The notes beneath the pieces are model-generated. The model worked only from the letters and a program-made list of their open reading frames with translations. It was not told the DNA's origin and did not search any database. This document shows positions 4,670-64,000 of a stretch of DNA of 64,000 nt, one piece after another. Position numbers and translations under genes: made by a program. Every line of letters starts with the position of its first letter. Within the stretch, counting starts at the first letter, position 1. The stretch comes from Clytia hemisphaerica (lineage: Eukaryota > Cnidaria > Hydrozoa > Leptothecata > Clytiidae): the NCBI GenBank assembly GCA_902728285.1, contig CACVBU010001363.1, positions 282,851 through 346,850 on the forward strand, written 5' to 3'.

Positions 4670-5158
4670 TTACAATTGTCTTGTGTTGAATATTTTCGGG
4701 TGTTTACTCCATGCAGTGTTGAGTCTTTCTTTGAAGACTTTGACTGTCTTTGACTCAGCGACATCTTTTGGCAATTTATTCCAGGTTGGTATAGTTCGAT
4801 AAAAGAAGGAATTCGTTTGTACACCACGGAGTCCATCGCTTCCAAAGTTTGGAATCATCTCAAAGTTGTGCCTTCTGTTTGGTCGCGTTCGACGGGCTAT
4901 CTTGTTTGGGATGGTATCTTTTTCGTAATAGTTGATGTGCTTGTAAAGTTGGACCATGTCACAAAAGTGTCTTCTAAACTCGAGCGTAGGAAGATCTAAT
5001 TCACGCAATCGTTCTTCATAAGACATATCACGACATTTTTGAACAAGTTTTGTTGCCCGTCTTTGTACTCCTTCAATCAGATTTACGTGTTTACGTAGAA
5101 ACGGAGACCATACTGACTGAGCGTACTCCAGATGCGGGCGAACAAACGCACAATACAA
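4670..5158 (-). pseudogene. LINE ORF2 C-terminal domain
   Basis: This frame begins with the VRPHLEYAQSVWSP motif shared by CR1-like elements and continues with EGVQRRATKLV, EERLRELDLPTLEFRR, FCDMVQLYKHIN and TIPTWNKLPKDVAES. It ends at a stop at 4,670 shortly before the 3' UTR. It is the ordinary C-terminal part of the ORF2 protein, offset by one frame from the RT part. Confidence 0.8.
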
Positions 5159-5846
5159 TGTTTTTAAATGTACTTGTACTCATATTTACAAATCCTCGAT
5201 TGATTATGCCAAGTATCGCGTTTGCTTCTTTGACTTGCTTTGCAATGTGTTCTTCAAATGTAAGTTCTGAGTCAATGAGGATTCCAAGATCTTTTTCTTC
5301 AAAGACGTGTTCCAATTGGCGTCCATCTAGGGAATATGGATGAGCATGTTTGATGTTTCCAAACTTTCCTAGCGTCAGAACGTGACACTTTTCAGGATGG
5401 AATAGTAATAGCCAGTCTTTCGACCATTCTACAAGTGTGTCTATATCATTCTGAAGGGAAACAGAGTCTTCGATGCAATTGACTTCTTTGAAGATTTTGG
5501 TATCATCAGCAAACAGTAGGATCAATGAGATGACCTTTTCAGGAAGATCATTGATGTATAGCACGAACAGCATTGGTCCCAGTACACTACCCTGTGGAAT
5601 ACCACTCACTACAGGGTCTGTAGTCGAGAAGGACTGGTTCACTTTTACTGATTGAGTTCGACCTGTTAGAAATGACGTTATCCATTTTAAGATTGAACCG
5701 TTGATGCCATATGCTGATAGTTTCTTGCATAGTCGACGGTGGGGTACAGTGTCGAAAGCCTTCGCAAAATCGAAGTAGACACTATCAACAACGTTTCCTT
5801 TAGAGATGCTCTCATAACATTTATCCAGATAGTAATGAGCCTTCAA
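5091..5846 (-). pseudogene. LINE reverse transcriptase, palm domain
   Basis: The frame contains VYFDFAKAFDTVPHRRL (RT block with the first catalytic Asp), SGIPQGSVLGPMLFVLYIND, and LLFADDTKIF holding the catalytic FADD. It continues with DWLLLFHPEKCHVLTLG and EKDLGILIDSELTF of the thumb region. The N-terminal RT blocks are missing because of the deletion at the upstream junction. The frame is lost near 5,155 and the protein goes on in a second frame (VRPHLEYAQSVWSPF). A second fragment of a similar RT is present at 41,655-42,790. Confidence 0.85.
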
Positions 5847-6774
5847 CTAAAGATTTGTTCATGATTACAGCCAAGGGTAGAGACAGATAGTCAGATAATT
5901 CCGCTAGTATCCTAGGGTGTATTTCGTCTGGACCGAATGACTTATTATGGTTGAGCTCTTTCAATCGATTCTGTACCATCTCCTCAGAGATATGAATATC
6001 TCTGATGGATGAATCAGTTCTCTTTTCAAATGCAGGAAGCTCACCTACTGCTTCTTTTGTGAATACACTGCAGAACTGTCGTTGAAGTATATTAGCTTTT
6101 TCGTGATCTTCATGCTTTAACGAGGTTTTGACATTTGGTGATTCAAGTAGTGATGAAACTGTACTAGAAGATTTCATCTTGTTACGCACATGTGACCAGA
6201 AGATCTTCGGTTTGGTCTTTGCGTTATCACAAATTCTTTGTTCGTAGTTCCTGTGAGCTTGCTTCATCAATTTGCTCACTCTGTTTCTTACAGGGGTGTA
6301 TTTTGCTCGATTGTATTCTTTTTCTTCGGGCGATGATTTCATCCATTTCCGATGGAGGCGTCTCTTCTCTGCTATTTCTTTCCGAAGTTGAACTCCAATA
6401 GGTATTTTACCTTTCTTCCTCCAGTTTTGACCACCGATGATCTTTATGGGTACAAAACGGTTTCGTATATCCAAAATCTTCTTTCGGAAAAGCTGCCAAA
6501 GCTCCTCGGTTGACTTAGAATCAGCCATCTCCGGGAATTGCTTGTACCAATCATCAGAGTTGAGATCTTGTTTCATTGCTTCAAAGTCTGCGTCCTCGTA
6601 CTTGTATCTTTCTGATTTAGGTTTCAATACAGCATCACATTTGATAGTGAAGGTCAAGCAACTATGATCGCTTAAACACAAAGGACTGAGATACTCTAGA
6701 CATAGAGCTTGGTTAGCTTCACCTGTTAGAATGAGATCGACTAAAGATGGGTCGTCAGTCCCACGGCACCTGGT
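5821..6774 (-). pseudogene. LINE ORF2, end of endonuclease and linker to RT
   Basis: Starting from the SDH motif of the endonuclease, this frame runs through the linker typical of CR1-like ORF2 proteins: a basic segment (RNRVSKLMKQAHRNYEQRI), PKIFWSHVRNKMKS, and the start of the RT domain with NHNKSFGPDEIHPRIL and MNKSLVEG. The residues that should follow, the WK-NV-P and NYRP-SL blocks, are absent. The sequence instead joins to YYLDKCYESISKG, which belongs well inside the RT. An internal deletion of roughly 200 bp therefore lies near 5,835. Confidence 0.75.
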
Positions 6775-7552
6775 TGGTTTCTTCTACACTTTGGTGGAGA
6801 AAGGAGTCGCGAAGGGCATCAAGAAATTTTTCTTCTTTACTTTCCTCGAGATGTGGCGTCGTCCAATTTTTCCAATTGATTGTTGGGAAGTTAAAGTCCC
6901 CGACAAAGCATTTATGAGAGTATTTGTTGTTTGAAGCGATATCTTTGATTAGATGATTCAACTTGTTGTTGTTATTTTCAGCTGACGTGTCATTGTTCGT
7001 AGGGGAGCGATAGATACAGGAGAAGACCAGGAGATCGTTTCCGGATAGACGAATTTCGATTGTGGATACTTCATTGAAATTGACTTGGTTCATTGATTGG
7101 TTGACATCGGTGACCAAATGTTTGATCGATGAATGAGCAAGAATAATTATCCCGCGACCGATGCCAGTGGTCATGTTCGTATGACTGACACATTTATAAT
7201 GTTTAAGCTCGTGTTCGTGTAGCTCTCGCAGTCCATCGTGCTTTGGTTTCACCTCACATATCGCAATGATGTGGGGATGATGTTTCTCTACATCAAGCAC
7301 CAGTTGTCGCTTCTTCTCAGGTGTTAGCGTGTCGGCGTTGCAATAAAAGATCCTGATTTCGTTTATCTTTATTTCAACATCATCTACTTGATTTACGTTA
7401 TGGTTTTCTTGAATTATTGTTCTCCGATTGTTTTCGTTTGAGCAAGATTCTTGGCGAATACTACATTCTTCGTGTCTGTCTTCTTTGTTTGGGATCTGAT
7501 TTTGACCTTGATGATGTCGAATCCGTTTTTTGAGTCCCCTCGAACTCTCCAT
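6755..7552 (-). pseudogene. LINE ORF2, apurinic endonuclease domain
   Basis: After a charged N-terminus the frame shows an exonuclease-endonuclease-phosphatase fold signature: IRIFYCNADTL at the start, AICEVKPKHDG around the usual metal-binding Glu, CIYRSPT, and FVGDFNFPTINW containing the conserved GDFN. The frame ends in a stop at about 6,755, but the same protein continues in another frame across 6,774-6,680 (DDPSLVDLILTGEANQ, then SDHSCLTF with the conserved SDH), so a one-base shift separates the parts. This domain nicks target DNA in APE-type LINEs. Confidence 0.8.
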
Positions 7553-24696: not shown

Positions 24697-25707
24697 TTGA
24701 ACATTTACAAATTTGACATCGTTTGTTTGGGTGAAACTTTTTTGAATTCTGAGATAAAAGATGACGATCCTAGGCTGGCTATTGATAATTATGAGATCAA
24801 AAGATGCGACCATCCCTCTAATAATAAGAGAGGTGGTGTTTGTATCTATTACCGAGATCATCTAGATCTCGATGTGAAACCACAACTCACTACATTGGAC
24901 GAATGTCTTGTAGCTGAGATGAAAACCGGTGGGAACCGGTTTTTTCTTTCTCTTTGTTATCGCTCCCCCAGTCAGACTTCTGATGAGTTTGAGGTTTTCT
25001 CTCGTAAATGGGAGGAGACAATTATAAACATTAATAATTTTTCTCCGACTGCTACAATTTTTCTTGGGGATTTTAATGTCAAGAATTCTGACTGGTGGGG
25101 CGGTGACGTCACTGATCCTGTTGGTAGAGATATTCAAAATCTAGCTACCCAGCATGGTCTGCGTCAATTAATTGATGGACCTACTCACCTCCTTCAAAAT
25201 TCTTCTTCTTGCATCGATCTAATTTTCTCATCAGCAGATCATTTGGTCTTGGATTCTGGTATCCTTCCCTCTTTGCACCCTAAATGCCATCACCAGATAA
25301 CCTTTTGCAAATTAAATTTTAAAATCCCTTTAGCTCCATCTTATGAACGTAAAATTTGGGACTTTTCCAGAGCAAACCCCATTCCTATTCGGAGGGCATT
25401 AGACATGGTAGACTGGGATGTATGTTTTGAGGGTCTTGATGTCGACGGGAAGGTTTCTCTTATGACTGAAACTATAATCAATATCATGTCAAATTTCGTG
25501 CCAAATAAGGTCATAACCGTCAGGAACAAGGATGCAGTATGGATGACGGCTGGGATAAAGAGAGCCCTACTTGAAAAATCTAAAGTCTATAAGCGGTATG
25601 TCAAAAATGGGAGGAGGGTAGAAGATCTTGAAACCCTCCATGAACATCAGTCTAGGTGTAGAAGGGTAGTCAGAGAGATGCAAAAAATTATTATTTTTCT
25701 CGTTTAG
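24676..25707 (+). pseudogene. LINE ORF2, APE-type endonuclease and linker
   Basis: Motifs in order: FDIVCLGETFLNS with the catalytic Glu, RGGVCIYYRDHLDL, LSLCYRSPSQT, TIFLGDFNVKNSDWW with the GDFN block, SSSCIDLIFSS, and HPKCHHQITF at the position of the final His block. A DNA-binding linker follows (NKDAVWMTAGIKRALLEKSK). The frame ends at 25,707, but coding goes on in another frame from about 25,688, after a run of six A at 25,682-25,687 where one base appears to be missing. This could be a true mutation or a base-calling error. Confidence 0.85.
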
Positions 25708-26921
25708 CAACTAATTTTAGTGATCCAAATCTGGGAACGAAAAAATACTGGTCCATTTTAAATCAATTTCTTCATAAGAGGAAGACGCCAAGGATTCCCC
25801 CTGTTCGAGACTCCAGCAATAATCTCATTGCTGATGTTCCAACAAAAACAAATATGTTTAACAAATTTTTTGCTAATCAGTGCTCTCTCATAGACACTGA
25901 TAGTGTTTTGCCACAACAAAGCTTTGCTACAAATCTTGAAATAAACAATATTGCTCTTGATGAAGCAAAAATTTTAGCCCTTATACGCGCACTTACATCT
26001 AACAAAGCGCATGGTTGGGATGACATCTCCATACAGATGATTAAGATCTGTGATGAATCCTTGGTTAAACCTCTTATGAAAGTTTATCAATTTTCCCTAG
26101 ATTCTTGTGTTTTTCCATCGAATTGGAAAAAAGCAAATGTTGTCCCTGTTTATAAAAACAAAGGGGACAAGAGTGTGTTAAAAAACTACAGGCCAGTATC
26201 TCTTCTACCTATTTTTGGTAAAATCTTTGAAAAATGCATCTTTGACTCTGTTTACACCTATTTTGAAAACAACAATCTCTTTACTAATTCCCAGTCTGGT
26301 TTCCGCAAGGGTGACTCTTGTGTGTCCCAGCTTTTGTCCATAACGCACGACATCCTGGTAGGTTTCGATTCAAATCCACCTCTAGATACTCGCGGAGTAT
26401 TTCTTGATATTTCCAAAGCTTTTGACAGAGTTTGGCATGATGGGCTGATTTTCAAACTTAAGTCGTATGGTGTGTCCGGGCCCCTTCTCTCATTACTTCA
26501 AAATTTTCTCTCAGGTAGGTTGCAGCGGGTGGTTCTTGATGGCCAAGCTTCCAATTGGACGGAGGTCTTGGCCGGTGTACCTCAAGGCTCTATTCTAGGA
26601 CCGCTCTTCTTTCTGATATATATTAACGACCTCCCTGAAGGAATTATTTCCATGATCAAAATTTTTGCTGATGACTCGTCAATATTCTCCCTTATCCTTG
26701 ATCATATTCGCTGTTCAAACGAATTGAACAGTGACATGCAGAAGGTTAGTGAGTGGGCTCATCAATGGAAAATGACCTTCAACCCTGATCCTTCTAAACA
26801 GGCTGTTGAAGTGTACTTCACTCGGAGGATAAATCTACCTGATCTTCCAGAAATTTATTTTAACAAACAACGCAGCCATTGCTCGACAAGATCATCAAAA
26901 ACATCTTGGTCTCATTCTTGA
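25688..26921 (+). pseudogene. LINE ORF2, reverse transcriptase
   Basis: All RT blocks are readable in one frame: LTSNKAHGWDDISIQMIK, NWKKANVVPVYKNKGD, LKNYRPVSLLPIFGKIFEK, SQSGFRKGDSCVSQLL, VFLDISKAFDRVWHDGL with the first catalytic Asp, AGVPQGSILGPLFFLIYIND, IKIFADDSSIFS with the catalytic FADD, and WAHQWKMTFNPDPSKQ. The domain is thus complete and could be catalytic. The frame is lost near 26,865, where AAC-rich sequence (aacaaacaac) seems to have gained 4 bases. Confidence 0.9.
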
Positions 26922-34907: not shown

Positions 34908-35429
34908 TCATGATCGGTCCCAGATATCGTCCAGGAGCCAACGAGGCTCACGTCGATTACGTTGTGGTCGAGCAGCGACCGGGGCTTCGTTCTCGATTGC
35001 GATGTCATCATTATCGGATGGTGATACGTCTTCATCTTCGTCTTCGTCTTCATCGGATTCGCTTTCGATGGTCGGATTTTGTGGACGGAAAGATATTTCT
35101 TCAGGCTGGACTGGGTAGATTGATGTTAAAGGCACCTCGTACCGTCTCGACATAAATGAGGAACCGTTGATCTTCTGGATTATAGCGACACTATTTCTGA
35201 TTTGCATCACTATATAACGTTCACGCGCTTTGAACTTGTCTTTATCGTTCTTAATATAGACAAGATCTCCAACATGGATGGATTTTGTTGGTAACTTTAT
35301 TGGATGTCCCTTGATTTTCGAAAGGGCACTAGCAGCGTGATTACGATGACGGTATTCCTTTTGTTGGTTACTGAGATGGTTGTCGTCAATATCAAGACTT
35401 TCTCCAGTGATCTGATCGCGACGGAACAA
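34908..35429 (-). CDS. Integrase C-terminal domain of the LTR element
   Basis: Continues the integrase in a new frame. It has a basic segment, then HVGDLVYIKNDKDKFKARER, the SH3-like C-terminal fold of retroelement integrases, SRRYEVPLTSIYPVQP, a run of alternating Asp/Glu, and a basic end RPQRNRREPRW. It stops at 34,908. The acidic run has a counterpart in integrase tails of related elements that may contact chromatin (inference). Confidence 0.7.
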   Translation of the reverse strand: MFRRDQITGESLDIDDNHLSNQQKEYRHRNHAASALSKIKGHPIKLPTKSIHVGDLVYIKNDKDKFKARERYIVMQIRNSVAIIQKINGSSFMSRRYEVPLTSIYPVQPEEISFRPQNPTIESESDEDEDEDEDVSPSDNDDIAIENEAPVAARPQRNRREPRWLLDDIWDRS

Positions 35430-37845
35430 AAATTTCTTTGGCTGAGAGTCCTCGGTTGCGTATTCGTGAATTGATGGTGTTTACAGCCAATGATAGCTCG
35501 GAGAATGAAACGGCTTTACCGGATGGATTGATTCGCAAAAGCTCTTCCTCAAGTTCTTGAACGGCTCTCTCAGCTACCGGGTTTTTGTTCGGATTTTTGA
35601 TACGTCCAAGATCAATAGTGATCCCATGTTGATGAAGGATCCCGTCATTGTGGAGCGCTTGGAATCCTGGGGCGTTGTCGACTCTAATAAAGCATTGATC
35701 CTTGCGAACGAGTGATGTTGTGGAGATCAGTGATGCACGAAGGGAGTCAGCGGTTTCATCTGGAATGGTTGTGGCCGTCGTGAAGGATGAATGTACGTCA
35801 CGAGTTAGCAGAATTTTCTGTTTGGCACGTCGGATAACGTCAGAAGCAAACTGTTCGCCGGGAGATTTTGGTGATGGTGAGGAACTTTGTTGCACGAGTT
35901 CCTTGGGAAGTCGTTGGAGTGAGGTACATTGGGCGCAGTTGGTAACGGTGTTTTTGACTGCGTCGTCACAGTTCAAAGCATAGAAATAGCGGTTGAAGAG
36001 TTGAAGCAGTTGGTTACGGGTGGCGTGTCTGAAGTGTAGGTGTAACGCTGTTAAGAGTCCCGGTAGAATCTGTTGAGATACGATGATGAGCTTTCGCTCT
36101 GCAACATATGGATCTTGTTTGCGGTGAATCAGCAATCCATCGGAACTAATGGAAGCAACTTGAAGGTACCGCCGCAAATTTCGGATGTTTCTGGTTTTTC
36201 GAGAAGGTCGGGTTCCTTTGGACAGATGTGCGTAGGTACGACGAAGATCGTTGCAGTCATGCTGAGCTGATCTCCATGCGTTTGAATTCAAGAATGGCAT
36301 ACGAGCTTGACCAGATAGAACGTCAGATACCTGGACGGATGCAACAACAGAGGATGCAGTATCGTTAACGAATTTGCAGATCTGACACGAGGAATCAGAG
36401 CACTCTTGAGGATGTCTTGATGAAAAATCGCTGGTCGGGTTTGACGTTCCCTTAAGATGGCACATTGTGATGGGGTAGTTGCTCAGACACGCTAAAAACG
36501 TAGATACTCGTGATGATGCTGAAAAATGTCCTTGCTTCAACTTGGCAAATGCCTGGACACACGGCTTATTGTCCGAAAGAAGTTGTAAAGGGTTTTTGGA
36601 TTCGCGGATGTACGGTGAGAAGTGTTTCACACCCGCAGTTATGGCTAGAGCCTCATGTTCGCAAGGCTGCCATCCGTACTGGTGCTCCTTCAGTTTGAGG
36701 CTGAAGTTGTCTGCAAGAGAACGTTTGTTGTCTCGTAGGATGTAGAGGGTGGCACCAATACCATTGTTCACTGGAGCGGCATCGACAGTCATGATAAGTT
36801 GATCATCAGGAGTCGGGATGGTAAGGATGCTTGGTGATTTGAGAGCATCTTGAGATGACTTGAAATGAGCTAAGTCCTCAGGTGACCAATTGATTTTCTG
36901 AGAACCGTCCATGTTTTTGATGATTGCTTCTAGTGGCGATAACAGCGATGAGTGTCGAGGGATACATCTAGCGATTGCTTTGTATGCACCGATATAAGAA
37001 CGCATAGCAGTGCACGTTGTGGGTGGTGCTGATGCAACCAAAGGCGAGATCTTGTGAGGAGTGACAGACAGCTGTCCGGATGTCCATCTCCATCCAAGCA
37101 CGGTGGTAGATTTGGGGCAGATTACGGTTTTACTGGCCGAGAGAGTAAGGTTGTTCTCTCTCAATCGATGGAGTACGCGGGACCAATTAATAAATGTCTC
37201 TTGGATAGTGTTTCCTCCAACGTGAAGGTCGTCGGCAAGGACAGTAACAAATCCTTCTTGGATAAAATCACCAAGAACACGGGATGTCAGTTCTTGCAAA
37301 TGTTCCGAAGAGCCTGGCATACCCATAGCGGAACGAAGGTAGATACGCAGTCCTTTAAACGGTGTTACTGTTCCTAGATACGGTACGGAAGCGGAATCTA
37401 AAGGAATTTGAAAGAAACTTTTGGTGAGGTCGGTCTTGATTAAGTACTTCCACGATGACAAACGGCGTAGGACGTCATCGCAGCTTTGAGAAGCGACAGG
37501 TAAGACTTTCGTGTACTGACACAATTCGTTGAAAGCAGTACAGAATCGAAAGGAGCCGTCTGGTTTCTTTACGAGTAGACTTGGAGAAGCAAACTGTACG
37601 TCGACACCCACGTCTTCAGGTTTTGCGAGTACTCCCAGGGCTTCCAACTTATCGGCTTCCTCCTGTAGTTGTTTGTAACTGAGTGTGGTTGTAGAACGGT
37701 AACTTTGGTTTTCGTGGAGGAGGGTCAACATTACCGAAATTGAGTTTGGCACGTATTCTTCCACTGTTGTCGTTATAGACACCGAATTGTGGGTTAAAGA
37801 CATTGTCGTAGTCTTTATGTAGTTGGAGAAATTGTCCCTTCTCAC
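35392..37845 (-). CDS. Reverse transcriptase, RNase H and integrase of the LTR element
   Basis: 817 codons. RT: SPSLLVKKPDGSFRFC, LIKTDLTKSFFQIPL with the first catalytic Asp (about residue 139), and VLADDLHVGG with the catalytic pair at about 205-206, unusual in having L-A before DD. RNase H: TVDAAPVNNGIGA (Asp about 354), CEHEALAI (Glu about 398) and LLSDNKP (Asp about 425). Integrase: an H-H-C-C zinc domain (HLHFRHATRNQ to TNCAQC), Asp in ASDVIRR, Asp in RVDNAPGFQAL and Glu in NPVAERAVQ. The frame shifts near 35,425 in a T-run, after which the C-terminus continues in another frame. Confidence 0.85.
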   Translation of the reverse strand: MRRDNFSNYIKTTTMSLTHNSVSITTTVEEYVPNSISVMLTLLHENQSYRSTTTLSYKQLQEEADKLEALGVLAKPEDVGVDVQFASPSLLVKKPDGSFRFCTAFNELCQYTKVLPVASQSCDDVLRRLSSWKYLIKTDLTKSFFQIPLDSASVPYLGTVTPFKGLRIYLRSAMGMPGSSEHLQELTSRVLGDFIQEGFVTVLADDLHVGGNTIQETFINWSRVLHRLRENNLTLSASKTVICPKSTTVLGWRWTSGQLSVTPHKISPLVASAPPTTCTAMRSYIGAYKAIARCIPRHSSLLSPLEAIIKNMDGSQKINWSPEDLAHFKSSQDALKSPSILTIPTPDDQLIMTVDAAPVNNGIGATLYILRDNKRSLADNFSLKLKEHQYGWQPCEHEALAITAGVKHFSPYIRESKNPLQLLSDNKPCVQAFAKLKQGHFSASSRVSTFLACLSNYPITMCHLKGTSNPTSDFSSRHPQECSDSSCQICKFVNDTASSVVASVQVSDVLSGQARMPFLNSNAWRSAQHDCNDLRRTYAHLSKGTRPSRKTRNIRNLRRYLQVASISSDGLLIHRKQDPYVAERKLIIVSQQILPGLLTALHLHFRHATRNQLLQLFNRYFYALNCDDAVKNTVTNCAQCTSLQRLPKELVQQSSSPSPKSPGEQFASDVIRRAKQKILLTRDVHSSFTTATTIPDETADSLRASLISTTSLVRKDQCFIRVDNAPGFQALHNDGILHQHGITIDLGRIKNPNKNPVAERAVQELEEELLRINPSGKAVSFSELSLAVNTINSRIRNRGLSAKEIFVPSRSDHWRKS

Positions 37846-39100
37846 TAGGTGTCAATTGACTGTCAGGATCGACTAAGATATTGCTGGAAAAAAGGATGGA
37901 TTTCGGTTTGCAGTCTGTGATCAGTTGTTTAGAAGCTGGAGAGATGACTTCAGACTGATGAAAAGGTGTTGGCGGTGTTGGTGTTGTGACACGTCGTATA
38001 GTTGCAATGTGTTGTGACTTGGATACATAGACAGGAGAGTTCGTTTCGTTTGGAATTCTGACCGTTCCATTAATCACACGAGAGATAGTAGGTGGTGGCC
38101 AATTACCATTGGCTGGCGAGTCAGTTCTAGGTTCGATAGCAACCTCACCTTCGTAATGTGAAATTGCTTGGTTATGAATCTCAAGGAATTCTCCTGGGTA
38201 CACAACGGATGTGGAATCATTTCGTAAAACAGTTGATTGGACTCGGTAGATGTCGTGTTGAATGGAATTGGGTCTTGAACCATACGGTATGCGTTTCTGG
38301 TTTAACGAGATCTCTTCTGTACCAAGATGCACGTCGATGTTGTTAGACTTGCAGAAAGGGACACCTGCAAGGATGTCGCAATCTAATGATTCAGTCACTA
38401 ATGCCTCAATAGGAAGTTCATAATCGCCAAAAAATAATTTAAACTTTGCTTCGCCGAGGAGGTTGAGAGGAGTCTTATCAATTTGACGAGCAGCATGAGA
38501 TGTAGGAGTTAGTTTGATCCCTGCTCTTGCGATAAAATCAGCAGAAACTAACGAGGATGTGGCGCCCGTGTCAATAACTACGCGACATGTATGGTGTTTC
38601 AGAAACGCGTAGAAGAATGGCGATGAGTTGGATTGAACTCGAGCGATGGATGTACCTTGTTCGAGTTTGTCGGGTGGAGGCGCTGATGTACACGATTTGA
38701 CGTCACTGTGATCTAGAGGATCTTCAAGATCGTTACCAGGATCTACTTCAACAGCTAGTGCGCTTGCGATCTCCTTCTTGTCAAATTTACTGATGAACCA
38801 GCATGTGGAAACATCATGTCCTTGGTAGGGTCGACTTGCAGCCTTACACAGAATGCAGGTTTTCGACTTTTGATGTGATTTTTGAGGATGTGAATTTCGT
38901 TGACTTGGTTTTCCAGGATAACGGCGATTGTTGTAGCTCGAGCGTGAGTAGTTGACTTGAATATCCTCTTGGACATTTAATTCGGTAAGTAAGGAGTCCA
39001 TTGCCGCACATATCTGTGGTTGGATATCCTTTAGCGAGCGTGATTGTAGATCGTGAGCAAATACTCTAGCGACATAAGATGGAAGACGCTCGTCAATCAA
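37649..39100 (-). CDS. Gag C-terminus, zinc knuckle and aspartic protease of the LTR element
   Basis: Begins with the end of gag (DERLPSYVARVFAHDL). Residues about 82-100 form a Cys-His knuckle, C-x2-C-x9-H-x4-C, longer than the classical spacing. Residues about 174-190 hold the protease active site VVIDTGATSSLVSADFI, with DILAGVPFC as the partner block. The C-terminal part (FNPQFGVYNDNSGRI) leads to the RT, which lies in a different frame and overlaps this one by about 200 bp. The overlap suggests ribosomal frameshifting for pol, though a mutation is possible. Confidence 0.75.
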   Translation of the reverse strand: MIDERLPSYVARVFAHDLQSRSLKDIQPQICAAMDSLLTELNVQEDIQVNYSRSSYNNRRYPGKPSQRNSHPQKSHQKSKTCILCKAASRPYQGHDVSTCWFISKFDKKEIASALAVEVDPGNDLEDPLDHSDVKSCTSAPPPDKLEQGTSIARVQSNSSPFFYAFLKHHTCRVVIDTGATSSLVSADFIARAGIKLTPTSHAARQIDKTPLNLLGEAKFKLFFGDYELPIEALVTESLDCDILAGVPFCKSNNIDVHLGTEEISLNQKRIPYGSRPNSIQHDIYRVQSTVLRNDSTSVVYPGEFLEIHNQAISHYEGEVAIEPRTDSPANGNWPPPTISRVINGTVRIPNETNSPVYVSKSQHIATIRRVTTPTPPTPFHQSEVISPASKQLITDCKPKSILFSSNILVDPDSQLTPSEKGQFLQLHKDYDNVFNPQFGVYNDNSGRIRAKLNFGNVDPPPRKPKLPFYNHTQLQTTTGGSR

Positions 39101-51943: not shown

Positions 51944-54900
51944 ATCAACCATCGAACGGTAAAACGAAGAGAAGATAACTATTTTTTCAATCCTTATGGG
52001 TGGACTCTACAACACCAATATGAACCAACCACACTTCAGAAGGGAATGGATGGTTTGACAGGCAATGACTTTGCATTAGCCTCGTACCTACAGATGGCTA
52101 ATTCGAAGCTGGAGAAAAAAGACCAAGCATCTTTTTATATTGGGAAATTGTGTCGTTGGGTGAAAGATGAAGGAGGACTTGGTGTCGATGGAAAAACTTT
52201 CATAGGTATATTCTTTAGGGTCTAAGTATGAAGTATGTTCAATCTTAGTTGGGTTTTTAAAAATCTATGCCAATTTATCATAGCACTTATAAATCATTTT
52301 TAAAGCGTTTCAAATAGGAAGGAGAGGAAACAGTAAATCAGCAATGATTTTTCTCAATCACACGATTTAGAAAGTGGAACTTGAAATTCATACAATACTT
52401 TACATAAACTAATGGGGAGCCTCACAATATAGATTTGCACTGTTACATGCTGAATTATTCCAGGTGGTAATCAGAAATAATTTTAAATAAAAAACAGTCT
52501 ATTTATCAAATATGTTTTCTTCCCTTATTTTAAGCAAACGACGAACCAGTGCGTGAGGGAACCAAAATTTTCGGAGCATTCAGCTTCGATGGTAAAATAA
52601 AGAACAGCAACTTTCGGCGAATATCCTTCTCTCCGTCAATTCATATGTGTACCCATGGCAACCAGCAACCATTATTCTGGGAAGACAAAAAGGAAAAGAT
52701 CAACAAAGAAGAATATTCTCATTCTGCAACTCGTGAACGTTGGTATTACCGATACATAATCCTCTGTTTACCAAAACACTCTCAGCTAGAGTTATTCACA
52801 CAAAAAGAGATGTGGTATGAAAGTCTGTGCTTTATCAAAGATGAAATCCAAGTCTCGTCACCAAGATTCATATCTTCAATCAAATCAGTTATAGAGAAGG
52901 CATCAAGTAGTTTTTTCAAGCAATCAAGATATAACGATTTAGATGATGGACCTTTCGTCGAAGAAGAAGAAGAGGGATTATGGTACCCTGATGATGAACC
53001 TTTACTCACAATGACCCAGTTATTAGTCAATGCTGATGATGTTGAAATGGCCAAAATGTTTCTACGAAAATTCTATGCTGAAAAAATTGATTATGACGAA
53101 AAATTTGTCGACAAAATGCCAAAAAGCTCAGAACAAGCCCTCGCTAAACTTCTGAAATCTTTTCAGTGGAAAGATCTTGAAGACACTATTGACGATATTA
53201 TTTCTCACACGCAGGTGGAGGAGCTTTTTCGATGGATCGATATTTCTTCTGATTGCGGAATTAAAGAAATTACAGATAAAGTCATCAACATTTGTTTAGA
53301 AAAGCTTCCAGAATTTCACGAAATCAGCACAGCTCCTATAACTTCCTACCCAAATGGATCGGAGCCATATTACCCGCTGTGGACAAAGATCTTTCAAAAA
53401 GTGTTCACAGATGAATATTTCTCCAATCTTTGGTGGGAGAAATTATCAACATGTCAACAAATTATATCAAATATTGGGCTTGTGCTGCAATTTTGTGCTG
53501 ACTTGCCAACAGAGTGTCATTCAAAGTATTCCATTGTTAACAAATTCCTAATCAAATGTTTGAAAATGAGGCTGTCCGTCGACGCCTACACGCCATTGCT
53601 ATATGCTGCTATTAAACCACTATTTAAAGATACTGTTACTTACAAGAACGAAATACATGATATTTTTAATCAGCTTCTCAACACAAATAATTCACGTTTG
53701 GTTGGGAAAGTATTACTTCTTATAACTGAACGAGAGAAAACCTACAGCAGTACAGAAGTCTTCAAATCTGTTATTGATCTTTATATGAACTGGCTTCTTA
53801 TAGCTCCTGAAATGACTGCTGCCTTTGACGATGAAATAACATTTCTGACTGAAATCATTTATGTTCGTGGTGTTGTTATCGAAAACCCCAAAAAGTTGGT
53901 GAAAATTTGTAAGAGAATCACAGATTTAAAGGAATTTAGTGGTTTGATTGATAAACTTTTCCGTGTTTTACCGAAAGAGAAAGAGAAATCACATTGCAAG
54001 TTCATGACAGAATTGGTGAAAGTTGTTTACTGTGCTTTACCAAATTGTACCTGGGATGATACAGAAGATCTGTGTTGGGTTTTGACTGCACTTTTTGAAC
54101 GTGGCGATTCTTACCATTATATTCTGAGCAAGATGCTTGCCACAGAAGCTGTCACCCTAGACGATGACATAATGGGATACACTCTTTGGTCACTACTCAC
54201 AGACCCTGATATAGATATCCAGAAACTGAAATCGAATACTAATTTTCGCTTACTGCTTGTCAATTATTCTCTTCTTTTACAAGATCCACAATACCCCGAA
54301 CCAGACATGGAACCTGATCACGCTTACTACCGGACTGTTATTAAATTTCTCCTATCACAGCCTGATTTTCCACTCACCCATGAGTTACTACCAGCCTTAT
54401 TACAAATCCCATTCTACAAGAAGAATTGGAAGAAATTCTTAAAGCTCGTGGCGAAAGTTAATCTAGAGAAAACGGAGACTTGTAAAATGCTTCTAACGTT
54501 GGCTGTTGAAATCTTTGAAATCGTTCTTGAAGAAGAAAAACGTGTTGGGAGACTGTCGTCGGTACGGTATAAAGCCATTCTACGCGTTTTTAAAACTGTG
54601 TTTCAAGATGATTTTTATTCAGATATAGCTTGGCAGTTGACTTCTTTACAAGCTTTCCAAATAAACGGTCAAAGCAATATAAACAAAGAGAAACAAAGTT
54701 TAGAGAAACTTATTCGTGACTTGAAAGAGGATTTCTCTCAGCATGAATCTTATGCTCGACTTGTATCCATTCGTGTCGAGAATCTAACATCTCTTTACCA
54801 AGAAGGTCAACCCAGACTTCATTGGGACCAACCTAATGCAGAATTTCCCACTGATGAAAACATCCAAGCGTTCTTAAGAGGTCAGCAAACAACCTACAGT

Positions 54901-55191
54901 GTTTTGGGCAAATTCCCTGATTTACAAGCGGCTGGACATTGGATTGACGCGTACTGTAGGCCAAGCTTCATTCAATCTCACAGCTTCTCTGGTATAGCTC
55001 GTATTTCAAACGTCGGGTCGGTTGAGTTGATACTGCAGAAAGAACGCCATATCTATGAGAAAGAGAACATTGCTTTTCGTCTCTTGATGGAAGAATTGAC
55101 TGATTTGCAGGATGAGTTAAGAATGTTTCCGAAGTTTCATTCAAAATTGCAAGCTAGTGGTGTTAAAAGAAAAAGAGAAGTCCGGTTGTAA
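51944..55191 (+). CDS. Host gene: large alpha-helical protein, start resembles the end of a 2OG-Fe(II) oxygenase-type module
   Basis: Two exons: 51,944-52,205 and 52,535-55,191, with an AG before 51,944, donor GTATAT at 52,206 and acceptor TTCCCTTATTTTAAG before 52,535; the phase-1 junction joins cleanly. About 973 codons are visible. The first 150 residues (TLQHQYEPTTLQKGMDGLTG, FGAFSFDGKIKNSNFRRISF, RERWYYRYIILCLPK) resemble the region C-terminal to the catalytic core in large 2OG-Fe(II) oxygenase-like proteins, where an H-Y-T-L-G-D block and a WYR-A-V-WP block occur. An acidic linker and about 550 residues of helical repeats follow. The end (QAFLRGQQTTYSVLGKFPDL, then SFSGIARISNVGSVELILQK) is a compact domain. 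Intact and without decay, so probably functional. The N-terminal catalytic part is not found. Confidence 0.75.
52206..52534 (+). other. Intron of the host gene
   Basis: Begins GTATATTC and ends in a pyrimidine tract plus AAG. Its removal keeps the frame (ATA-G|CA-AAC). AT-rich, no other feature. Confidence 0.75.
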
Positions 55192-57933: not shown

Positions 57934-57935
57934 TA

Positions 57936-58108
57936 CTTTAACCGGATTAATTTTCGCGAGATTAAATTTCGCGAGTTAAAAAATTCGCGAAATTTTTTGG
58001 ACTTATTTTCGCGAATGAGCCCTTTGAAAAATTTCGCGTGGATTTAATTTCGCGAATGAGCCTTTTCAAATATTTCGCGTGGATTTAATTTCGCGAAGGG
58101 AAGAAATT
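57936..58108. repeat. Left terminal and subterminal repeats of the two-gene transposon
   Basis: After the 40-bp terminal repeat come further copies of TTCGCGAA-type palindromes and of the phrase TTTCGCGTGGATTTAATTTC followed by GCGAATGAGCC (about 58,005-58,100). Repeated subterminal words of this kind are usual transposase-binding sites in pogo and related elements (inference here). Confidence 0.8.
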
Positions 58109-58192
58109 CAAAAAAAATTTACTTCGGTCATCTTTACGATTTTCTTGAAACTCGACAATTTTGCTAAAAACAATGGTACAATGGTACAAAAA

Positions 58193-60055
58193 TTACAATT
58201 CTTTCTCATCATCAAAAGTTTCAAAAATGTCAAATGCAGAGCGTTGCTTCTCTGGCAAAACCCACGCGTCCTCGTCGTCATCTTCGCCGTTATCTTCTTC
58301 CTCCGTATCTTTCTGATTTCCCTTGATCTGTTCTTCGCTGAGATTGCACACGGCATTGATATCAGTACTCACATCAAACTGGTCAATCAATGGATCAATA
58401 TCGTCAAAGGGGTCAAGGGATGGAAGCGCTTTCGAACCAAGCCGTATAGCATCAGCTATTCCTGCAGCTTCCCATCCACTTTCAATAACTTTTCTTCCTT
58501 CCTCTGACGTTATGTAGTTGTAGAAATCAACGATCCATCCCGCGTGAGTTTGAGGGTCGATAAGCGCAACTTCACATCCACATCCTCCAATGATTTTCCA
58601 CTCTCCAATTGTTTTGAAATTTCTTCAGAATACCACTTGTTGAATTTCTTTGCCATGAATCTTTTGGCATGACCATTTACGGTCAAGTCGAGGGGCTGGT
58701 AGAATCTTGTCATATTTGCTGGTACTTTGGTGACAAGAATGTGATTATCATCCAAAAGCTTGGTTACGTCGCTCGTCATCTGACCAGTGAAAACGTCCAT
58801 TATCACTAGTGCCTTGTGCTCTGGCTCCAACCCTAAATCCAACCGTTGCTTCTTTACAAAGGGAATGATAACTTCGCTAAGCAATTTTATCGATTCTGCA
58901 GTATTCGAGAAGTGCTTAGGATTAACACTAAGAGAGAAACCATCTGGAAATTTGTATCGTGGTAAGCTTTTCTCAGTCTTACCTCCATAAATTAATTGCA
59001 TCGGGAGGAAGGTACCAGCAAGTGTTACGGCGAAAGTAGCGGTAATCGATCTCTTGTCTGCAGAACCCGCTATGGTTACTTTGGAACTGTTCCTTTTGGC
59101 AAGAGTGTTATTTCCACATTGTACTAGCTTTACTGGTGTTTGATCTAGGTTGATAATCAAAGATTTTGGAATCTCGTGCTTTTCCACTCTGTTTACGATT
59201 TCATAAAGAAAGATATACTCGATCTCCTTCCTTGCAGCATCAGGTATATCGACTTTGCTTGAAGTTTTTCTACGTCTCACATAACCCATTCGTCTGAAAA
59301 GACTTTGTCCCCAAGAAGATGATTCGATGTCAATTTCTCCAACCATCCCAGGGTACTTCCTCATCAGAGCTTTGGCAGCAGCATTGGCAATAGCCCAAGT
59401 TATGACGGCTCCTCTGTTGCTCATAGATTGGATGTATTTCTGAACCATGGAATCCAATGGTCCCATAAGAAGAGGCCTTCCTCGTTTGTTGGAAGCGATG
59501 ACTTTGGAAGGGTTGGCACCTGATTTCTTTTCTGCAACCAATTGGCTCTCATATTTTGTTTTGAAGGTACGCACAGAGCTCTCTTTCAGCTTGGGGAAAA
59601 TCTTACTGTAATGGCGTACAGCATTCGCATTTCCAAATTCAGATGCGTACTTCCCAATGTTAAAACGATCAGTGTCATTGTATTTAATATATTTGGTACT
59701 GCGCTGGTTACTATTCTTGGCTGATACTTGTATCACATCGAAATCCACTTGACCGAGTGTGGTATCGTTCTTTGAGGTCGAGTCTTTGCTATCACCTTAA
59801 AGAAAAAATAATTTTTATAAGAAAAATACCAGGATGCCATACCAATCAAACCTAAGACAGTCATAAATTCGTCACAAAAAATGCTAGCAAATTGGATGAA
59901 CATTTGGGATATGTATAAAAAACTGCATTCATGTAGTTCTATGTAAATACCTTAGCCTTACCTTTGTTTTTCTCCGCAGAATAGTCTATACTAGTATTAC
60001 TGGCATCTTGTTTTTTCCCCTCACTTTCTTTGACTGATGCTCTGAAGAACGACAT
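58193..60055 (-). pseudogene. pogo-like DD35D transposase, one intron, one frame break
   Basis: Exon 1 (60,055-59,962) starts at the ATG of MSFFRASVKESEGKKQDAS and ends at donor GTAAGG; exon 2 begins at 59,795 after TTTCTTTAAG. Exon 2 has a helix-turn-helix-like N-terminus (IGKYASEFGNANAVRHYSKI), KRGRPLL, then the DDE_1 core: SLIINLDQTPVKL, ALVIMDVFTGQ and FYQPLDLTVNGH. The second and third Asp are 35 residues apart. A base is missing near 58,540, where the frame changes to WIVDFYNYITSEEG, AAGIADAIR and a long acidic tail ending at 58,193. Apart from that break the protein is well preserved. It would cut and join the element ends. Confidence 0.85.
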
Positions 60056-60461
60056 CTTTACTTTCAGAGCAAGTGTCGTGTGTGTGGTGTGTGTTTTTAC
60101 AAAAATGGAAATAGCAAACATTCGAATGTTCGATTTCTTATGTAAGGCACTGTTTTCACGAAGAAAATACTTAGACAAACTTTCGATTAAGTGAGAATAC
60201 AGCCTTCACTGTAAAAAAAGAACGGAAACATTCGAATGTTCGATTTCTCATGTAAAGCCCTGTTTCCACGAAGCAAATACTTTTTTAGATTCACAGATGG
60301 AAAAGGTAAACATTCAATTGCAATCTTTGTTAGACAAGTGAGAACAGAGCCTTTAGTATAGAACGTAAACATTCGATTTTGTTAGACACTTCTCGCTGCT
60401 TTCTTTTACGTTTACTCTGGTCTTGCAACAAACAGAAGTTTTCAAACAGGAGTTTTCCAAG
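60056..60461. promoter_or_regulatory. Shared divergent promoter region with tandem repeats
   Basis: Lies between the two start codons (60,055 leftward, 60,462 rightward). A unit with AAACATTCGAATGTTCGATTT, CTTATGTAAGGC or CTCATGTAAAGCCCTG, TTTTCACGAAG and AAATACTT occurs at about 60,110-60,175 and 60,225-60,285, with a third partial copy (TAAACATTCAATTG, GTTAGACAAGTGAGAACAGAGCC) to about 60,375. The palindrome ATTCGAAT is at the heart of the unit. Repeated palindromes between divergent genes suggest sites for a shared regulator, possibly the transposase itself (inference). Confidence 0.55.
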
Positions 60462-61076
60462 ATGCCACTCAATAAAGAGTTTCAATCTGCTGTTCGTGGC
60501 TTTCATTATTATAAAAGATATTGGAGCCCAAGACTGGAAGAAGAACTATTTTGCTCTCACGAAAGAGATAATGCTTTTGATGTTTTTGCAATAAAAATCG
60601 CTGACCAATGTGGTAATATTCGAGGGCACCTACCACAGGAGATAGCAAGAATAACCAAGTTTCTGTTGGACAGAGGAGCGAAACTAACACTGACTCTGAC
60701 TTCTGATCGTTATCGAAGGTCTCCATTAGTCCAAGGTGGATTGGAAATACCCTGCCTTGTGAAAATTGTTATGATAAATACCAATAAAAACAATAAGATT
60801 TTGGATCGATATTTGGAATTGATAAATACGTTTTACACTGAGCCGACCCTTCCAGTTGTCCTTGGTTCTATACTATGCGATGACCTCTTGGTTGAATGCA
60901 GTGAACCAAAACAGAAGAAAAAATGCGTTGCAAAGAACCCCTCCTTGTCCAAGAAGCCTAAAGAGACAAAGTCCATGGACATAAGAAAACTATTTCTGAA
61001 CGCGGGAAAAAAATCTCAAGAGAAAAAGTCCCAAAATGTGGAAAATGAGGAAAGTGATGTAGTCACAATAGATTAG
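60462..61076 (+). CDS. HIRAN-domain protein of the two-gene transposon
   Basis: 204 codons from ATG at 60,462 (AAGATGCC context) to TAG. Residues about 8-105 match a HIRAN domain: FQSAVRGFHYYKRYWSP, ELFCSHERDNAFDVFAIKI, GNIRGHLPQEIARITKFLLD, and LVQGGLEIPCLVKIV. HIRAN domains bind 3'-OH single-stranded DNA ends in HLTF-type fork-remodelling enzymes. The C-terminal 60 residues are basic and hold SMDIRKLFLNAGKK, a weak match to a PCNA-interacting motif, then an acidic end. Divergent arrangement with the transposase inside shared TIRs marks it as part of the mobile unit. Known roles of HIRAN suggest a job in end recognition or in repair or replication coupling, which is inference. Confidence 0.75.
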   Translation: MPLNKEFQSAVRGFHYYKRYWSPRLEEELFCSHERDNAFDVFAIKIADQCGNIRGHLPQEIARITKFLLDRGAKLTLTLTSDRYRRSPLVQGGLEIPCLVKIVMINTNKNNKILDRYLELINTFYTEPTLPVVLGSILCDDLLVECSEPKQKKKCVAKNPSLSKKPKETKSMDIRKLFLNAGKKSQEKKSQNVENEESDVVTID

Positions 61077-61186
61077 ATATTTTCAATTTTAAAGATGTAT
61101 TATTCATATATATGTATTATTCATATCATTGTGTCATAAAAAGAAAAGAAAAGTGAACTAAAAAAAGCAAAATTAAAAAAAAACCT

Positions 61187-61347
61187 AGGTGGATTTATTT
61201 TCGCGAATGACCCCTTTGAAAAATTTCGCGCGGATTTAATTTCGCGAACGAGCTATCCCAAACGATTTCGCGAGTTTTATTTTCGCGAAAATGGCGAAAA
61301 TTCGCGAAACCGCGAAATTTAATCTCGCGAAATTAATCCGGTTAAAG
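61187..61347. repeat. Right terminal and subterminal repeats of the two-gene transposon
   Basis: Contains GGATTTATTTTCGCGAATG, TTTCGCGCGGATTTAATTTCG, GATTTCGCGAG, AAATGGCGAAAATTCGCG and then the terminal repeat. At least seven TTCGCG words occur in 160 bp. The phrase TTTCGCG-GGATTTAATTTCGCGAA is shared with the left end but in the same orientation, so the subterminal words are arranged partly as direct and partly as inverted copies. Confidence 0.8.
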
Positions 61348-61349
61348 TA

Positions 61350-61939: not shown

Positions 61940-62200
61940 GATTTCACGGGGATTTAATTTCGCGGATGACATTTTCGGGAAATGATATTTTCATGTGTCT
62001 TTTTACTGCCAAATTATACACACTGGTCGTTAAAATACGCATTATTAGCGCTTCTTTGATGTCAGTTAACATTATAAAAGTAGTTATTCGAGATTTTTTG
62101 AGTTTGGTTCAAAAGAATTTCGTGGATAAGACCTTTCTATATTTCCATTGGGACTTAATTTCGCGAATGACACCAAAACCCGCAAAATTTAATGCCATTG
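61940..62200. repeat. Remnant related to the TTTCGCG transposon ends
   Basis: CACGGGGATTTAATTTCGCGG at about 61,947 and GGGACTTAATTTCGCGAATG plus AACCCGCAAAATTTAATGCC at about 62,150-62,205 echo the subterminal words of the element next door. It is probably a degraded non-autonomous copy. The ends are not identifiable. Confidence 0.5.
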
Positions 62201-62299
62201 AAGGTTTAAAGTCTGGGAATATTGCACCAATACTGATCAATCGTCATGAGACACGAATCCATTGATAGGAGGAATCATTTTATGGACACTTGAACAATT

Positions 62300-64000
62300 G
62301 AAAATAGTTTCTTTGCAATCAAATTTCATATTTATGCTATTTGCAAGCCCTTTCGCCTATTTTCGTGGATTCAACACTACCTTCACTGAAGCTTTAGGTC
62401 AATTACAGATTTGGCGTCTTTTCCGATAAAAGTCGCCGTATCTGTTACGAGTCTTTCGTGACAATAGAACATCTAAGGATTGTTTCTTTGCAATCAAATT
62501 CTTAAATTTATGCTATTTGCAAGCCCTTTCGCCTATTTTCGTGGATTCACCACTACTTTCACCGAAGCTATAGATCAATTACAGATTTGGCGTCTTTTTT
62601 GATAAAAGTCCCCGGATCCGTTACGAGTCTTTAGTGACAATAGAACATCTAAGGATTGTTTCTTTGCAATCAAATGTCTAAATTTATGCTATCTGAAAGC
62701 AATTTGGTTTATTTTTGTGCGCTCATGACTGCTTTCATTGAAGCTGTAGCTCAATTACAGATTTGGCGTCTTTATCGATAAAAGTTGCCGTATCTGTTAT
62801 GAGTCTTTAGTGCCAATGGAACTTCTTAGGATTGTTTCTTTGCAATCAAATGTCTAAATTTATGCTATTTACAAACCCTTTGCTCTATGTTTGTGGATTC
62901 ACCACTACTTTCACTGAAGCTATAGGTCAATTACAGATTTGACGTCTTTTCTGATGAAAGTCGCCGTATCCGTTATGAGTCTTTAGTGACAATGGAACAT
63001 CTGAGGATTGTTTATCTGTAATCAAATATCTAAATTTATGCTATTTGCAAGCCCTTTGCTCTATTTTTGTGGATTCACCACTACTTTCACTGAAGCTATA
63101 GGTCAAATACAGATTTGGCGTCTTTATCGATAAAAGTTGCCGTACCTGTTATTAGTCTTTCGTGGCAAAGGAACATCTAGGAATTGTTTCTTGCAATCAA
63201 ATTTCTAAATTTATGCTATTTGCAATCAAGTTTCATATTTATGCTATTTGCAAGCCCTTTGCTCTATTTTTATGGATTCACCACTACTTTCACTGAAGCT
63301 ATAGGTCAAATACAGATTTGGCGTCTTTATCGATAAAAGTCGCCGTATCTGTTATGAGTGTTTCGTGGCAAAGGAACATCTTAGGATTGTTTCTTCTCTA
63401 TCAAATTTCTAAATTTCTGGTATTAGCAAGCCATTTCGTCTATTTTCGTGGATTCACCACTAATTTCACTGAAGCAATAGGTCAATTGCAGATTCAGCGT
63501 CCTTTCCGATGAAAGTCGCCGTATCTATTTTGAGTCTTTCCTGAGAAAGGAACATGTTATGATTGTTTCCTTGCAATCAAATGTCTAAATTTATGCTATT
63601 TGCAATCAATTTTCATATTTATGCTATTTGCAAGCCCTTTGCTCTATTTTTGTGGATTCACCACTACTTGTACTGAAGCTATAGGTCAATTACAGATTTG
63701 ACGTCTTTTCTGATGAAAGTCGCCGCATCCGTTATGAGTCTTTAGTGACAATGGAACATCTGAGGATTGTTTCTCTGTAATCAAATATCTAAATTTATGC
63801 TATTTGCAAGCCCTTTGCTCTATTTTTGTGGATTCACCACTACTTTCACTGAAGCTATAGGTCAAATACAGATTTGGCGTCTTTATCGATAAAAGTTGCC
63901 GTACCTGTTATTAGTCTTTCGTGGCAAAGGAACATCTAGGAATTGTTTCTAGCAATCAAATTTATAAATTTATGCTATTTGCAAGCCATTTCGTCTATTT
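62300..64000 (+). repeat. 176-bp satellite array with higher-order structure (runs off the right edge)
   Basis: A unit containing GATTGTTTCTTTGCAATCAAA, AAATTTATGCTATTTGCAAG, GTGGATTCACCACTACTTTC, ACTGAAGC and AGATTTGGCGTCTTT recurs from about 62,305. The landmark GATTGTTT falls at about 62,479, 62,654, 62,830, 63,006, 63,182, 63,384, 63,561, 63,765 and 63,941, giving steps of 175-177 with two of about 202-204. The long units carry an extra 27-bp partial duplication (GCAATCAA-TTTCATATTTATGC). Non-coding. Confidence 0.9.

What the first reader, a model, noticed from the sequence alone, without database searches (positions are those of the whole stretch)
57936..61347. Two-gene transposon: pogo-type transposase paired with a HIRAN-domain protein
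Seen: shared TIRs, TA sites, a DD35D transposase and a divergently oriented, intact HIRAN gene, with nothing else in the 3.4-kb unit. Known: HIRAN binds free 3' ends of DNA in HLTF-like proteins; most Tc1/mariner and pogo elements encode only a transposase. Inferred: the HIRAN protein is a transposition accessory, perhaps handling 3' ends at excision gaps or steering insertion to replication forks. I know of no description of this pairing, but I could not search.
Basis: partly seen in the sequence, partly recalled or inferred. Interest (0 to 1): 0.8.

Follow-up and report, generated by a model that had tools for sequence, protein, structure and literature searches.

The report
Two-gene pogo transposons carrying HIRAN-PIP protein
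This is a mobile DNA element that carries, beside the usual cutting enzyme, a second protein that looks built to grip loose DNA ends and perhaps the replication clamp; at least seven distinct element families in the same genome hold both genes, so the second protein probably helps the element move.

Summary
A 3,412-bp unit (57936-61347) with ~38-nt inverted ends and TA on both sides encodes a DD35D pogo-type transposase (predicted intron; frameshifted near its C-terminus) and a divergent, intact 204-aa HIRAN protein. The host genome (417 Mb, unnamed) shows that the pairing recurs: a second near-complete copy has both genes; 13 of 18 related HIRAN loci, and 13 of 15 loci of a second, very diverged HIRAN group, lie divergently beside a related transposase; nine units of seven families have inverted ends around both genes. 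HIRAN and transposase distances correlate (r 0.94, 66 non-independent pairs). New: in six of six group-1 families the HIRAN protein has a lysine-rich C-terminal tail with DIR(K/S/T)(F/L)(F/L), resembling human RFC1's PCNA-binding box MDIRKFF; group 2 lacks it. I propose an adaptor joining 3'-end recognition to the sliding clamp, working like Tn7 TnsE; that function is inferred. Copies lacking one gene exist: C208, C566, C292 (no HIRAN) and C771 (no transposase) derive from two-gene families; C899 may be a real exception. Seven literature searches naming HIRAN, six of them with transposon terms, showed no description of the pairing.

The parts
57934..57935 (.). TA, left target-site duplication
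   Evidence: TA on both sides in 17 of 19 short copies of the family fetched
57936..57973 (+). left terminal inverted repeat, ~38 nt (CTTTAACCGG...)
57998..58097 (+). left subterminal ~41-nt direct repeats rich in TTTCGCGAA
   Evidence: 86% identical, same orientation, to 61190-61289; 13 of the 14 TTTCGCGAR in the window lie in the element
58196..58560 (-). C-terminal part of the transposase, now in a shifted frame, with acidic tail
58513..59795 (-). transposase exon 2: DD35D catalytic domain (DDE_1) and HTH_Tnp_Tc5-like domain
   Evidence: frame change near 58545-58590
59796..59961 (-). predicted transposase intron, 166 nt, GT-AG
   Evidence: splice sites and continuous frame read from sequence; no transcript evidence
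59962..60055 (-). predicted transposase exon 1 (starts MSFFRASV...)
60056..60461 (.). intergenic region between the divergent genes with a 57-nt direct repeat (60116-60172, 60226-60282, 91%); presumed two-way promoter
   Evidence: repeat also in the C630 copy
60462..61076 (+). HIRAN protein gene, 204 aa, intact, no intron
60972..60995 (+). codons of SMDIRKLF, PIP-like motif in the lysine-rich tail of the HIRAN protein (residues 171-178)
61190..61289 (+). right subterminal direct repeats
61310..61347 (-). right terminal inverted repeat
61348..61349 (.). TA, right target-site duplication

Best explanation
The unit is one copy of an autonomous-type, two-gene pogo-superfamily transposon. Shown: inverted ends, TA sites, a DD35D transposase, a divergent HIRAN gene, and recurrence of the pair in seven families. 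Inferred: the transposase cuts and joins, and the HIRAN protein is a dedicated accessory. Its HIRAN domain would bind the 3'-ended single-stranded tips made at excision, or nascent 3' ends at gaps and forks. In group 1 its tail (lysine-rich, then DIRxFF) would bind PCNA. The protein would thus couple the transposition complex to clamp-loaded DNA with free 3' ends, either directing insertion there or handing the donor gap to clamp-dependent repair. It would work like Tn7 TnsE, without being related to it. It may act in trans, which would allow copies without HIRAN.
For: Pairing: 13 of 18 group-1 HIRAN loci (window included) plus one with only a fragment, and 13 of 15 group-2 loci, have a divergent transposase or part of one. 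Nine units of seven families hold both genes between inverted ends. HIRAN/transposase distances: r 0.94 over 66 pairs of 12 units, 0.92 over 21 pairs of seven group-1 loci, pairs not independent. Each of the six group-1 families has at least one HIRAN copy without stops, and in the three deep pairs tested synonymous sites are saturated while HIRAN dN is 0.34-0.53. DIR(K/S/T)(F/L)(F/L) is seen in 6 of 6 group-1 families, 9 of 18 loci; 0 of 20,000 shuffles of each of six tails held DIR[KSTN][FL]F. MDIRKFF is the human RFC1 PIP-box, KD 145 nM in a p21 peptide (PMC10672205, passages). The HLTF HIRAN cavity takes one single-stranded dinucleotide (PMC4666394, one section) and HIRAN binds a 3'-OH end (PMC11237066, passages). 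Drosophila pogo transposase binds PCNA, and TnsE joins recessed 3' ends to the beta clamp (PMC5371812, passages).
Against: No binding, transposition or expression datum. The group-2 HIRAN protein has no DIRxFF and scores below Pfam's HIRAN cut-off (E 0.066). The window's own motif is DIRKLF, with one aromatic, and with a generic PIP pattern it was not significant (P 0.53). HLTF's N90 is D here, and two alignments disagree at Y72. Rad5's HIRAN has no 3'-OH preference (PMC7804152, passages). Close pairs show HIRAN dN/dS of 1.0, 0.9, 5.7 (few changes) and 0.7, no evidence of selection by themselves. HIRAN-less copies exist.
Confidence: 0.45

Rival explanations
1. HIRAN decoy. The free-standing HIRAN protein covers the 3' ends of the cut element and donor site and so keeps host HLTF from evicting the transposase or opening the ends to resection.
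For: The isolated HLTF HIRAN domain acts as a dominant negative: it inhibits HLTF's removal of Cas9 from post-cleavage complexes and inhibits resection (PMC11237066, passages). The transposon protein is a HIRAN domain without a motor domain found by Pfam. It also fits group 2, which has no PIP motif.
Against: Does not by itself explain the recurring DIRxFF tail of group 1, although a clamp-tethered decoy would. The host HLTF gene was not examined.
Confidence: 0.25
2. Structural cofactor. The HIRAN protein is a DNA-binding or nuclear-import partner of the transposase, as the second protein of Harbinger elements is, with no special link to forks.
For: Divergent two-gene layout and a basic tail. 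That Harbinger elements have a Myb-like helper is recalled, not from a call.
Against: HIRAN is not known as a sequence-specific duplex binder (recalled). DIRxFF is unexplained.
Confidence: 0.2
3. Passenger: a host HIRAN gene captured by chance and carried along.
For: Copies lacking it exist (C208, C566, C292), and no direct test of function was possible.
Against: The same pairing and orientation in seven families whose HIRAN proteins differ by 44-71% and transposases by 36-77% between families. Similarity to HLTF is only E 0.029.
Confidence: 0.04

Closest known systems
pogo superfamily, Passer family (DD35D)
   Same: TA duplication, short inverted ends, DD35D DDE_1 domain, HTH_Tnp_Tc5-type DNA-binding domain (PMC7386202, passages and one section; PMC9976928, passages)
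   Different: Passer is described as having a single ORF and mostly very short TIRs under 30 bp, and pogo elements as having one or two ORFs that encode transposases; here there is a second gene that is not a transposase, a predicted intron and ~38-nt TIRs. BrkDBD was not detected. No tree with named Passer sequences could be built.
Tn7 TnsE (bacteria)
   Same: A transposon-encoded accessory that joins 3'-end recognition to a sliding-clamp motif (PMC5371812, passages)
   Different: Homology not tested and not claimed; for the present element both activities are predicted, not measured.
HLTF/Rad5 HIRAN domain
   Same: HIRAN domain; N91, D94, H110 and an aromatic at Y93 kept in seven of seven full-length group-1 proteins read (window, C914, C224, C55, C564, C36, C898)
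   Different: Free-standing, no motor or RING domain found by Pfam; own tail with PIP-like motif; N90 not conserved.
Tec and TBE elements of ciliates
   Same: Tc1/mariner-group elements with additional ORFs (PMC7325037, passages)
   Different: Their extra ORFs are described as a recombinase, a zinc-finger protein or of unknown function, not HIRAN.

Membership tests
pogo superfamily | DDE_1 catalytic domain | tested here: met
   E 2.4e-5, 24.4 bits against cut-off 22; group-2 transposase 1.5e-25
pogo superfamily | TA target-site duplication | tested here: met
   window copy; 17 of 19 short copies; C630 by the printed ends. In the seven further units the end scan demanded TA, so those are no independent test
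pogo superfamily | CENP-B/Tc5-type helix-turn-helix DNA-binding domain | tested here: inconclusive
   HTH_Tnp_Tc5 E 0.011-0.041, below cut-off, in the window copy; 1.3e-9, above cut-off, in group 2
Passer family | DD35D spacing | tested here: met
   spacing 35; D-D-D in 8 of 9 units where all three columns were covered, the ninth (C630) D-D-E
Passer family | BrkDBD motif | tested here: inconclusive
   not reported for 183 N-terminal residues, but HMMER's filters drop most matches above about 0.1; some Passer transposases have only HTH_Tnp_Tc5
Passer family | single ORF element | tested here: not met
   second gene in nine two-gene units
Passer family | groups with named Passer transposases in a tree | not testable with these tools
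   no collection of named eukaryotic transposases on hand
HIRAN domain PF08797 | score above Pfam gathering cut-off | tested here: met
   window 28.2-28.4 bits, C224 30.2, cut-off 24.7; the group-2 protein tested scores 13.5, not met
PIP-box proteins | hydrophobic residue at position 4 and aromatics at 7-8 | tested here: met
   DIRSFF/DIRTFF in C914, C74, C564, C224, C898; one aromatic only in window, C55, C672, C36; absent in group 2
PIP-box proteins | binds PCNA | not testable with these tools
   needs protein
TnsE | sequence homology to TnsE | not tested
   only a functional analogy is claimed

The most novel reading that the evidence does not exclude
A lineage of eukaryotic pogo transposons encodes its own HIRAN-PIP adaptor, a counterpart of Tn7 TnsE that steers transposition or its repair to clamp-loaded DNA with free 3' ends.
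Probability: 0.33. Interest if true: 0.88.

Novelty: new variant of a known kind. Interest (0 to 1): 0.72.

Why it matters
Drosophila pogo transposase was found long ago to bind PCNA, and the review read here says the functional relevance of such motifs remains unclear (PMC5371812, passages). A family that keeps a separate protein joining a 3'-end-binding type of domain to a clamp-like motif makes the link between eukaryotic cut-and-paste transposition and replication or repair directly testable. It would also show that bacterial and eukaryotic transposons converged on the same targeting logic.

Tried and rejected
Viral contigs with the HIRAN protein, the transposase and three DNA patterns: nothing. 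A fourth pattern gave one contig; its match is 32 residues at 56% (E 1.5e-4) in a frame that does not look like a transposase by eye. Genome contigs with the transposase: nothing; with a degenerate QGGLE[VI]PC-type pattern: 37 stretches, best tblastn E 0.007, taken as chance. Phage records: no match to HIRAN. PHROGs: one family of unknown function for HIRAN at E 0.0063; NCBIfam: nothing.

AlphaFold2 on the HIRAN protein alone gave mean pLDDT 38 and was not used. PDB search with the short tail: no match.

A passenger-gene reading was set aside on the recurrence of the pair. dN/dS on close copies is uninformative. A first comparison of short copies mixed orientations and is replaced. An earlier count said 10 of 10 group-2 loci; the right count is 9 of 9 (L089 belongs to C594).
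Full report
WHAT IS THERE. The element spans 57936-61347 (3,412 bp). TA flanks both ends; the ends are inverted over about 38 nt with one indel. Inside the ends lie ~41-nt units with TTTCGCGAA boxes, in the same orientation at both ends (86% over 101 nt). A transposase gene runs leftward: predicted exon 1 59962-60055, a GT-AG intron, exon 2 from 59795. It carries DDE_1 (E 2.4e-5) and a sub-threshold HTH_Tnp_Tc5; the second and third Asp are 35 residues apart. A frame change near 58545-58590 separates the catalytic part from the C-terminal tail, so this copy is probably inactive. A HIRAN gene runs rightward, 60462-61076, 204 aa, intact (E 1.5e-6 to 1.7e-6). Its codon-usage score is above that of 98.4% of random window segments.

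THE FAMILY IN ITS GENOME. The window is C932:282851-346850 of a 417,433,876-base assembly of 951 contigs, unnamed here; the host taxon was not determined. The DNA search scored 40 of 1,602 candidates and listed 143 matches, so counts are lower bounds. It found a second near-complete copy on C630 (94%) with both genes, TA at both printed ends and a ~6.5-kb insertion in the transposase, and, by my count of its table, 37 short places with the same end sequence, several of them only partial. Size classes include ~672, 755, 551 and 335 bp, formed by internal deletion (e.g. 1-363 joined to 3079-3412). Of 19 short copies fetched, 17 have TA on both sides; one has a mutated right end and one right end was not matched by my pattern. 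Ten copies of the ~672-bp class differ from each other by 1.7% on average, so that class spread recently.

HIRAN CENSUS. The HIRAN protein gave 41 matches (86 of 86 candidates scored), which I count as 38 places: 18 group-1 loci (window included), 2 tail-only matches (C805, C722:34391), 15 group-2 loci of almost equal score, and 3 weak ones not followed (C430, C455, C628). One query misses diverged pieces: C857 was seen only. A divergent transposase or part of one lies beside 13 of the 18 group-1 loci (C932, C630, C224, C914, C55, C672, C564, C36, C898, C432, C74, C374, C632); in C432 it is 3.8 kb away. C594 has only a short transposase fragment. C428, C771 and C760 have none in about 4.5 kb upstream; C647 was looked at over 1.5 kb only. 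In group 2, 13 of 15 loci have a divergent transposase 1.06-1.2 kb away by the two tables; C472 and C494 have no such row. tblastn on the nine group-2 loci held found it in 9 of 9.

ENDS OF THE OTHER FAMILIES. Twelve loci were extended and scanned for inverted ends of at least 10 identical nt bordered by TA, so TA is built into this scan. Seven gave long inverted ends around both genes: C224 3,370 bp, C564 3,150, C36 3,448, C898 3,419, C55 3,992, C74 2,821, C34 (group 2, 19 identical nt) 2,890. With the window copy and C630 that makes nine units in seven families. The scan gave nothing for C914, C428, C432 and C771 and only a 10-nt match for C760. By eye, C914 shows a right end of C74 type and C771 is a 1.26-kb element with C55-type ends that keeps 111 residues of HIRAN and no transposase. 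TTCGCG/TTGGCG-type boxes cluster in the outer 250 nt of the seven group-1 elements counted (window, C224, C55, C564, C36, C898, C74): 12-24 in 500 nt against 0-3 inside; C34 has none.

CO-INHERITANCE. Over 66 pairs of 12 units, HIRAN and transposase distances correlate at 0.94; over 21 pairs of seven group-1 loci (six families), 0.92. Pairs are not independent, so this is descriptive. In three deep pairs (C914-C224, window-C224, window-C564) synonymous sites are saturated while HIRAN dN is 0.34-0.53 with open frames, which implies purifying selection between those families. Close pairs: HIRAN dN/dS 1.0 (window-C630), 0.9 (C36-C898), 5.7 on very few changes (C914-C74), 0.7 (C55-C428); transposase 0.6-0.8, 0.4 and 1.5 for the first three. 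They fit decay of dead copies and prove nothing.

COUNTER-EVIDENCE ON THE PAIR. The transposase census gave 65 rows (83 of 83 candidates scored). C208 is a C55-type copy (94%) with a stop-free frame over residues 108-408; its HIRAN side is deleted up to a 22-nt right-end remnant, and an exact right end was not found. C566 (C564-type, two stops) and C292 (C55-type) lack HIRAN in the DNA held. C899, a lineage of its own, shows no HIRAN within about 2.6 kb upstream except a 17-residue match at E 0.3. C409, C533, C75, C832 and C34:1555265 are partial, and further weak rows (such as C924, C797, C327, C912, C225, C823, C508) were not examined for HIRAN. C857 keeps parts of both genes inside C55-type ends.

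THE TAIL MOTIF. In one search I saw SMDIRKLF in the window protein; a generic PIP pattern was not significant (P 0.53), a narrow RFC1-like one was (P 0.002) but was chosen after looking. The family alignment then gave a separate check: DIRSFF in C914, C74 and C564, DIRTFF in C224 and C898, DIRTLF in C55 and C672, DIRTFL in C36. That is 9 of 18 group-1 loci and 6 of 6 families, in a tail where little else is kept; the remnant C857 has DIRTLF too. The other nine loci are truncated, shifted or do not reach the tail in the frame read. None of the group-2 proteins read has it. Human RFC1's PIP-box is MDIRKFF (PMC10672205, passages). Of confirmed PCNA motifs, 34% lack the Gln and 43% lack one aromatic (PMC6881253, passages).

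HIRAN POCKET. HLTF's cavity is bordered by Y72 and Y93, and the N90/N91 double mutation abolished function (PMC4666394, one section). In the seven full-length group-1 proteins read, N91, D94, H110 and an aromatic at Y93 are kept; N90 is N, D or S; the Y72 column depends on the alignment. Residue numbers D94 and H110 are my count along the HLTF sequence printed. Group 2 keeps D94 and H110 but not N91.

HOW IT MAY WORK. Tc1/mariner-type cutting leaves short 3' overhangs (recalled), and Passer leaves 0-4 bp footprints like Tc1/mariner (PMC9976928, passages). A protein that grips a 3' dinucleotide and the clamp could hold cut ends, call clamp-dependent repair, or direct insertion to replicating DNA, as TnsE does with the beta clamp (PMC5371812, passages). 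Rad5's HIRAN domain itself contacts PCNA (PMC7804152, Discussion). The main rival is a decoy against host HLTF, since the isolated HIRAN domain inhibits HLTF at 3'-ended nuclease complexes (PMC11237066, passages). Both can be true together.

NOVELTY. Seven literature searches named HIRAN with transposon, transposase, transposable element or pogo terms, or as 'HIRAN domain-containing'; the other three were about pogo families, HLTF and RFC1. HIRAN with pogo as whole words gave 0 papers. One search showed 20 of 377 papers and also matches longer words, so it is weak evidence; the lists were complete and judged by title and abstract start, with one paper opened at passages (PMC11090510). The two pogo surveys have no 'HIRAN' in their main text (PMC7325037, PMC7386202). 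Supplements, Repbase entries and most subscription papers were not seen. From memory only: free-standing HIRAN-like proteins are common in invertebrate protein databases, so the lineage is probably widespread.

Noticed in passing
window 61941-62212: Decayed piece with two TTAATTTCGCG(G/A)ATGACA units 201 nt apart and an end resembling CTTTAAACC, perhaps an old relative of the element outside its right end.
   Followed up: partly
window 62321-62672: Two tandem copies of a 176-nt unit, 91% identical, with partial further copies of its parts.
   Followed up: no
window 60116-60172 and 60226-60282: 57-nt direct repeat (91%) in the presumed two-way promoter between the genes; also present in the C630 copy.
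   Followed up: partly
L047 positions ~967-7490 (C630): A ~6.5-kb insertion with inverted GGGAGCG... ends and a 1,091-aa open frame that by eye begins with a zinc-binding, PHD-finger-like stretch splits the transposase of the second copy.
   Followed up: partly
C195:197057-197362 (L088): A group-2 HIRAN match lies in a 1,909-aa open frame, much longer than the ~198 aa of most sisters.
   Followed up: no
L087-L096 except L089; C34 unit: Group-2 element: 15 HIRAN loci of almost equal score, TIR ATTTCTCTAATTTAATACG (one unit), transposase frames of ~470-511 aa in most; may have been active recently.
   Followed up: partly
window 35392-39100, minus strand: Retroelement with aspartyl protease, reverse transcriptase, RNase H and a weak integrase zinc-binding match.
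   Followed up: no
window 24697-26921, plus strand: Non-LTR retroelement: endonuclease domain followed by a reverse-transcriptase-like ORF (by eye).
   Followed up: no
window 52549-55191, plus strand: 880-aa ORF without a Pfam match at E 0.001.
   Followed up: no
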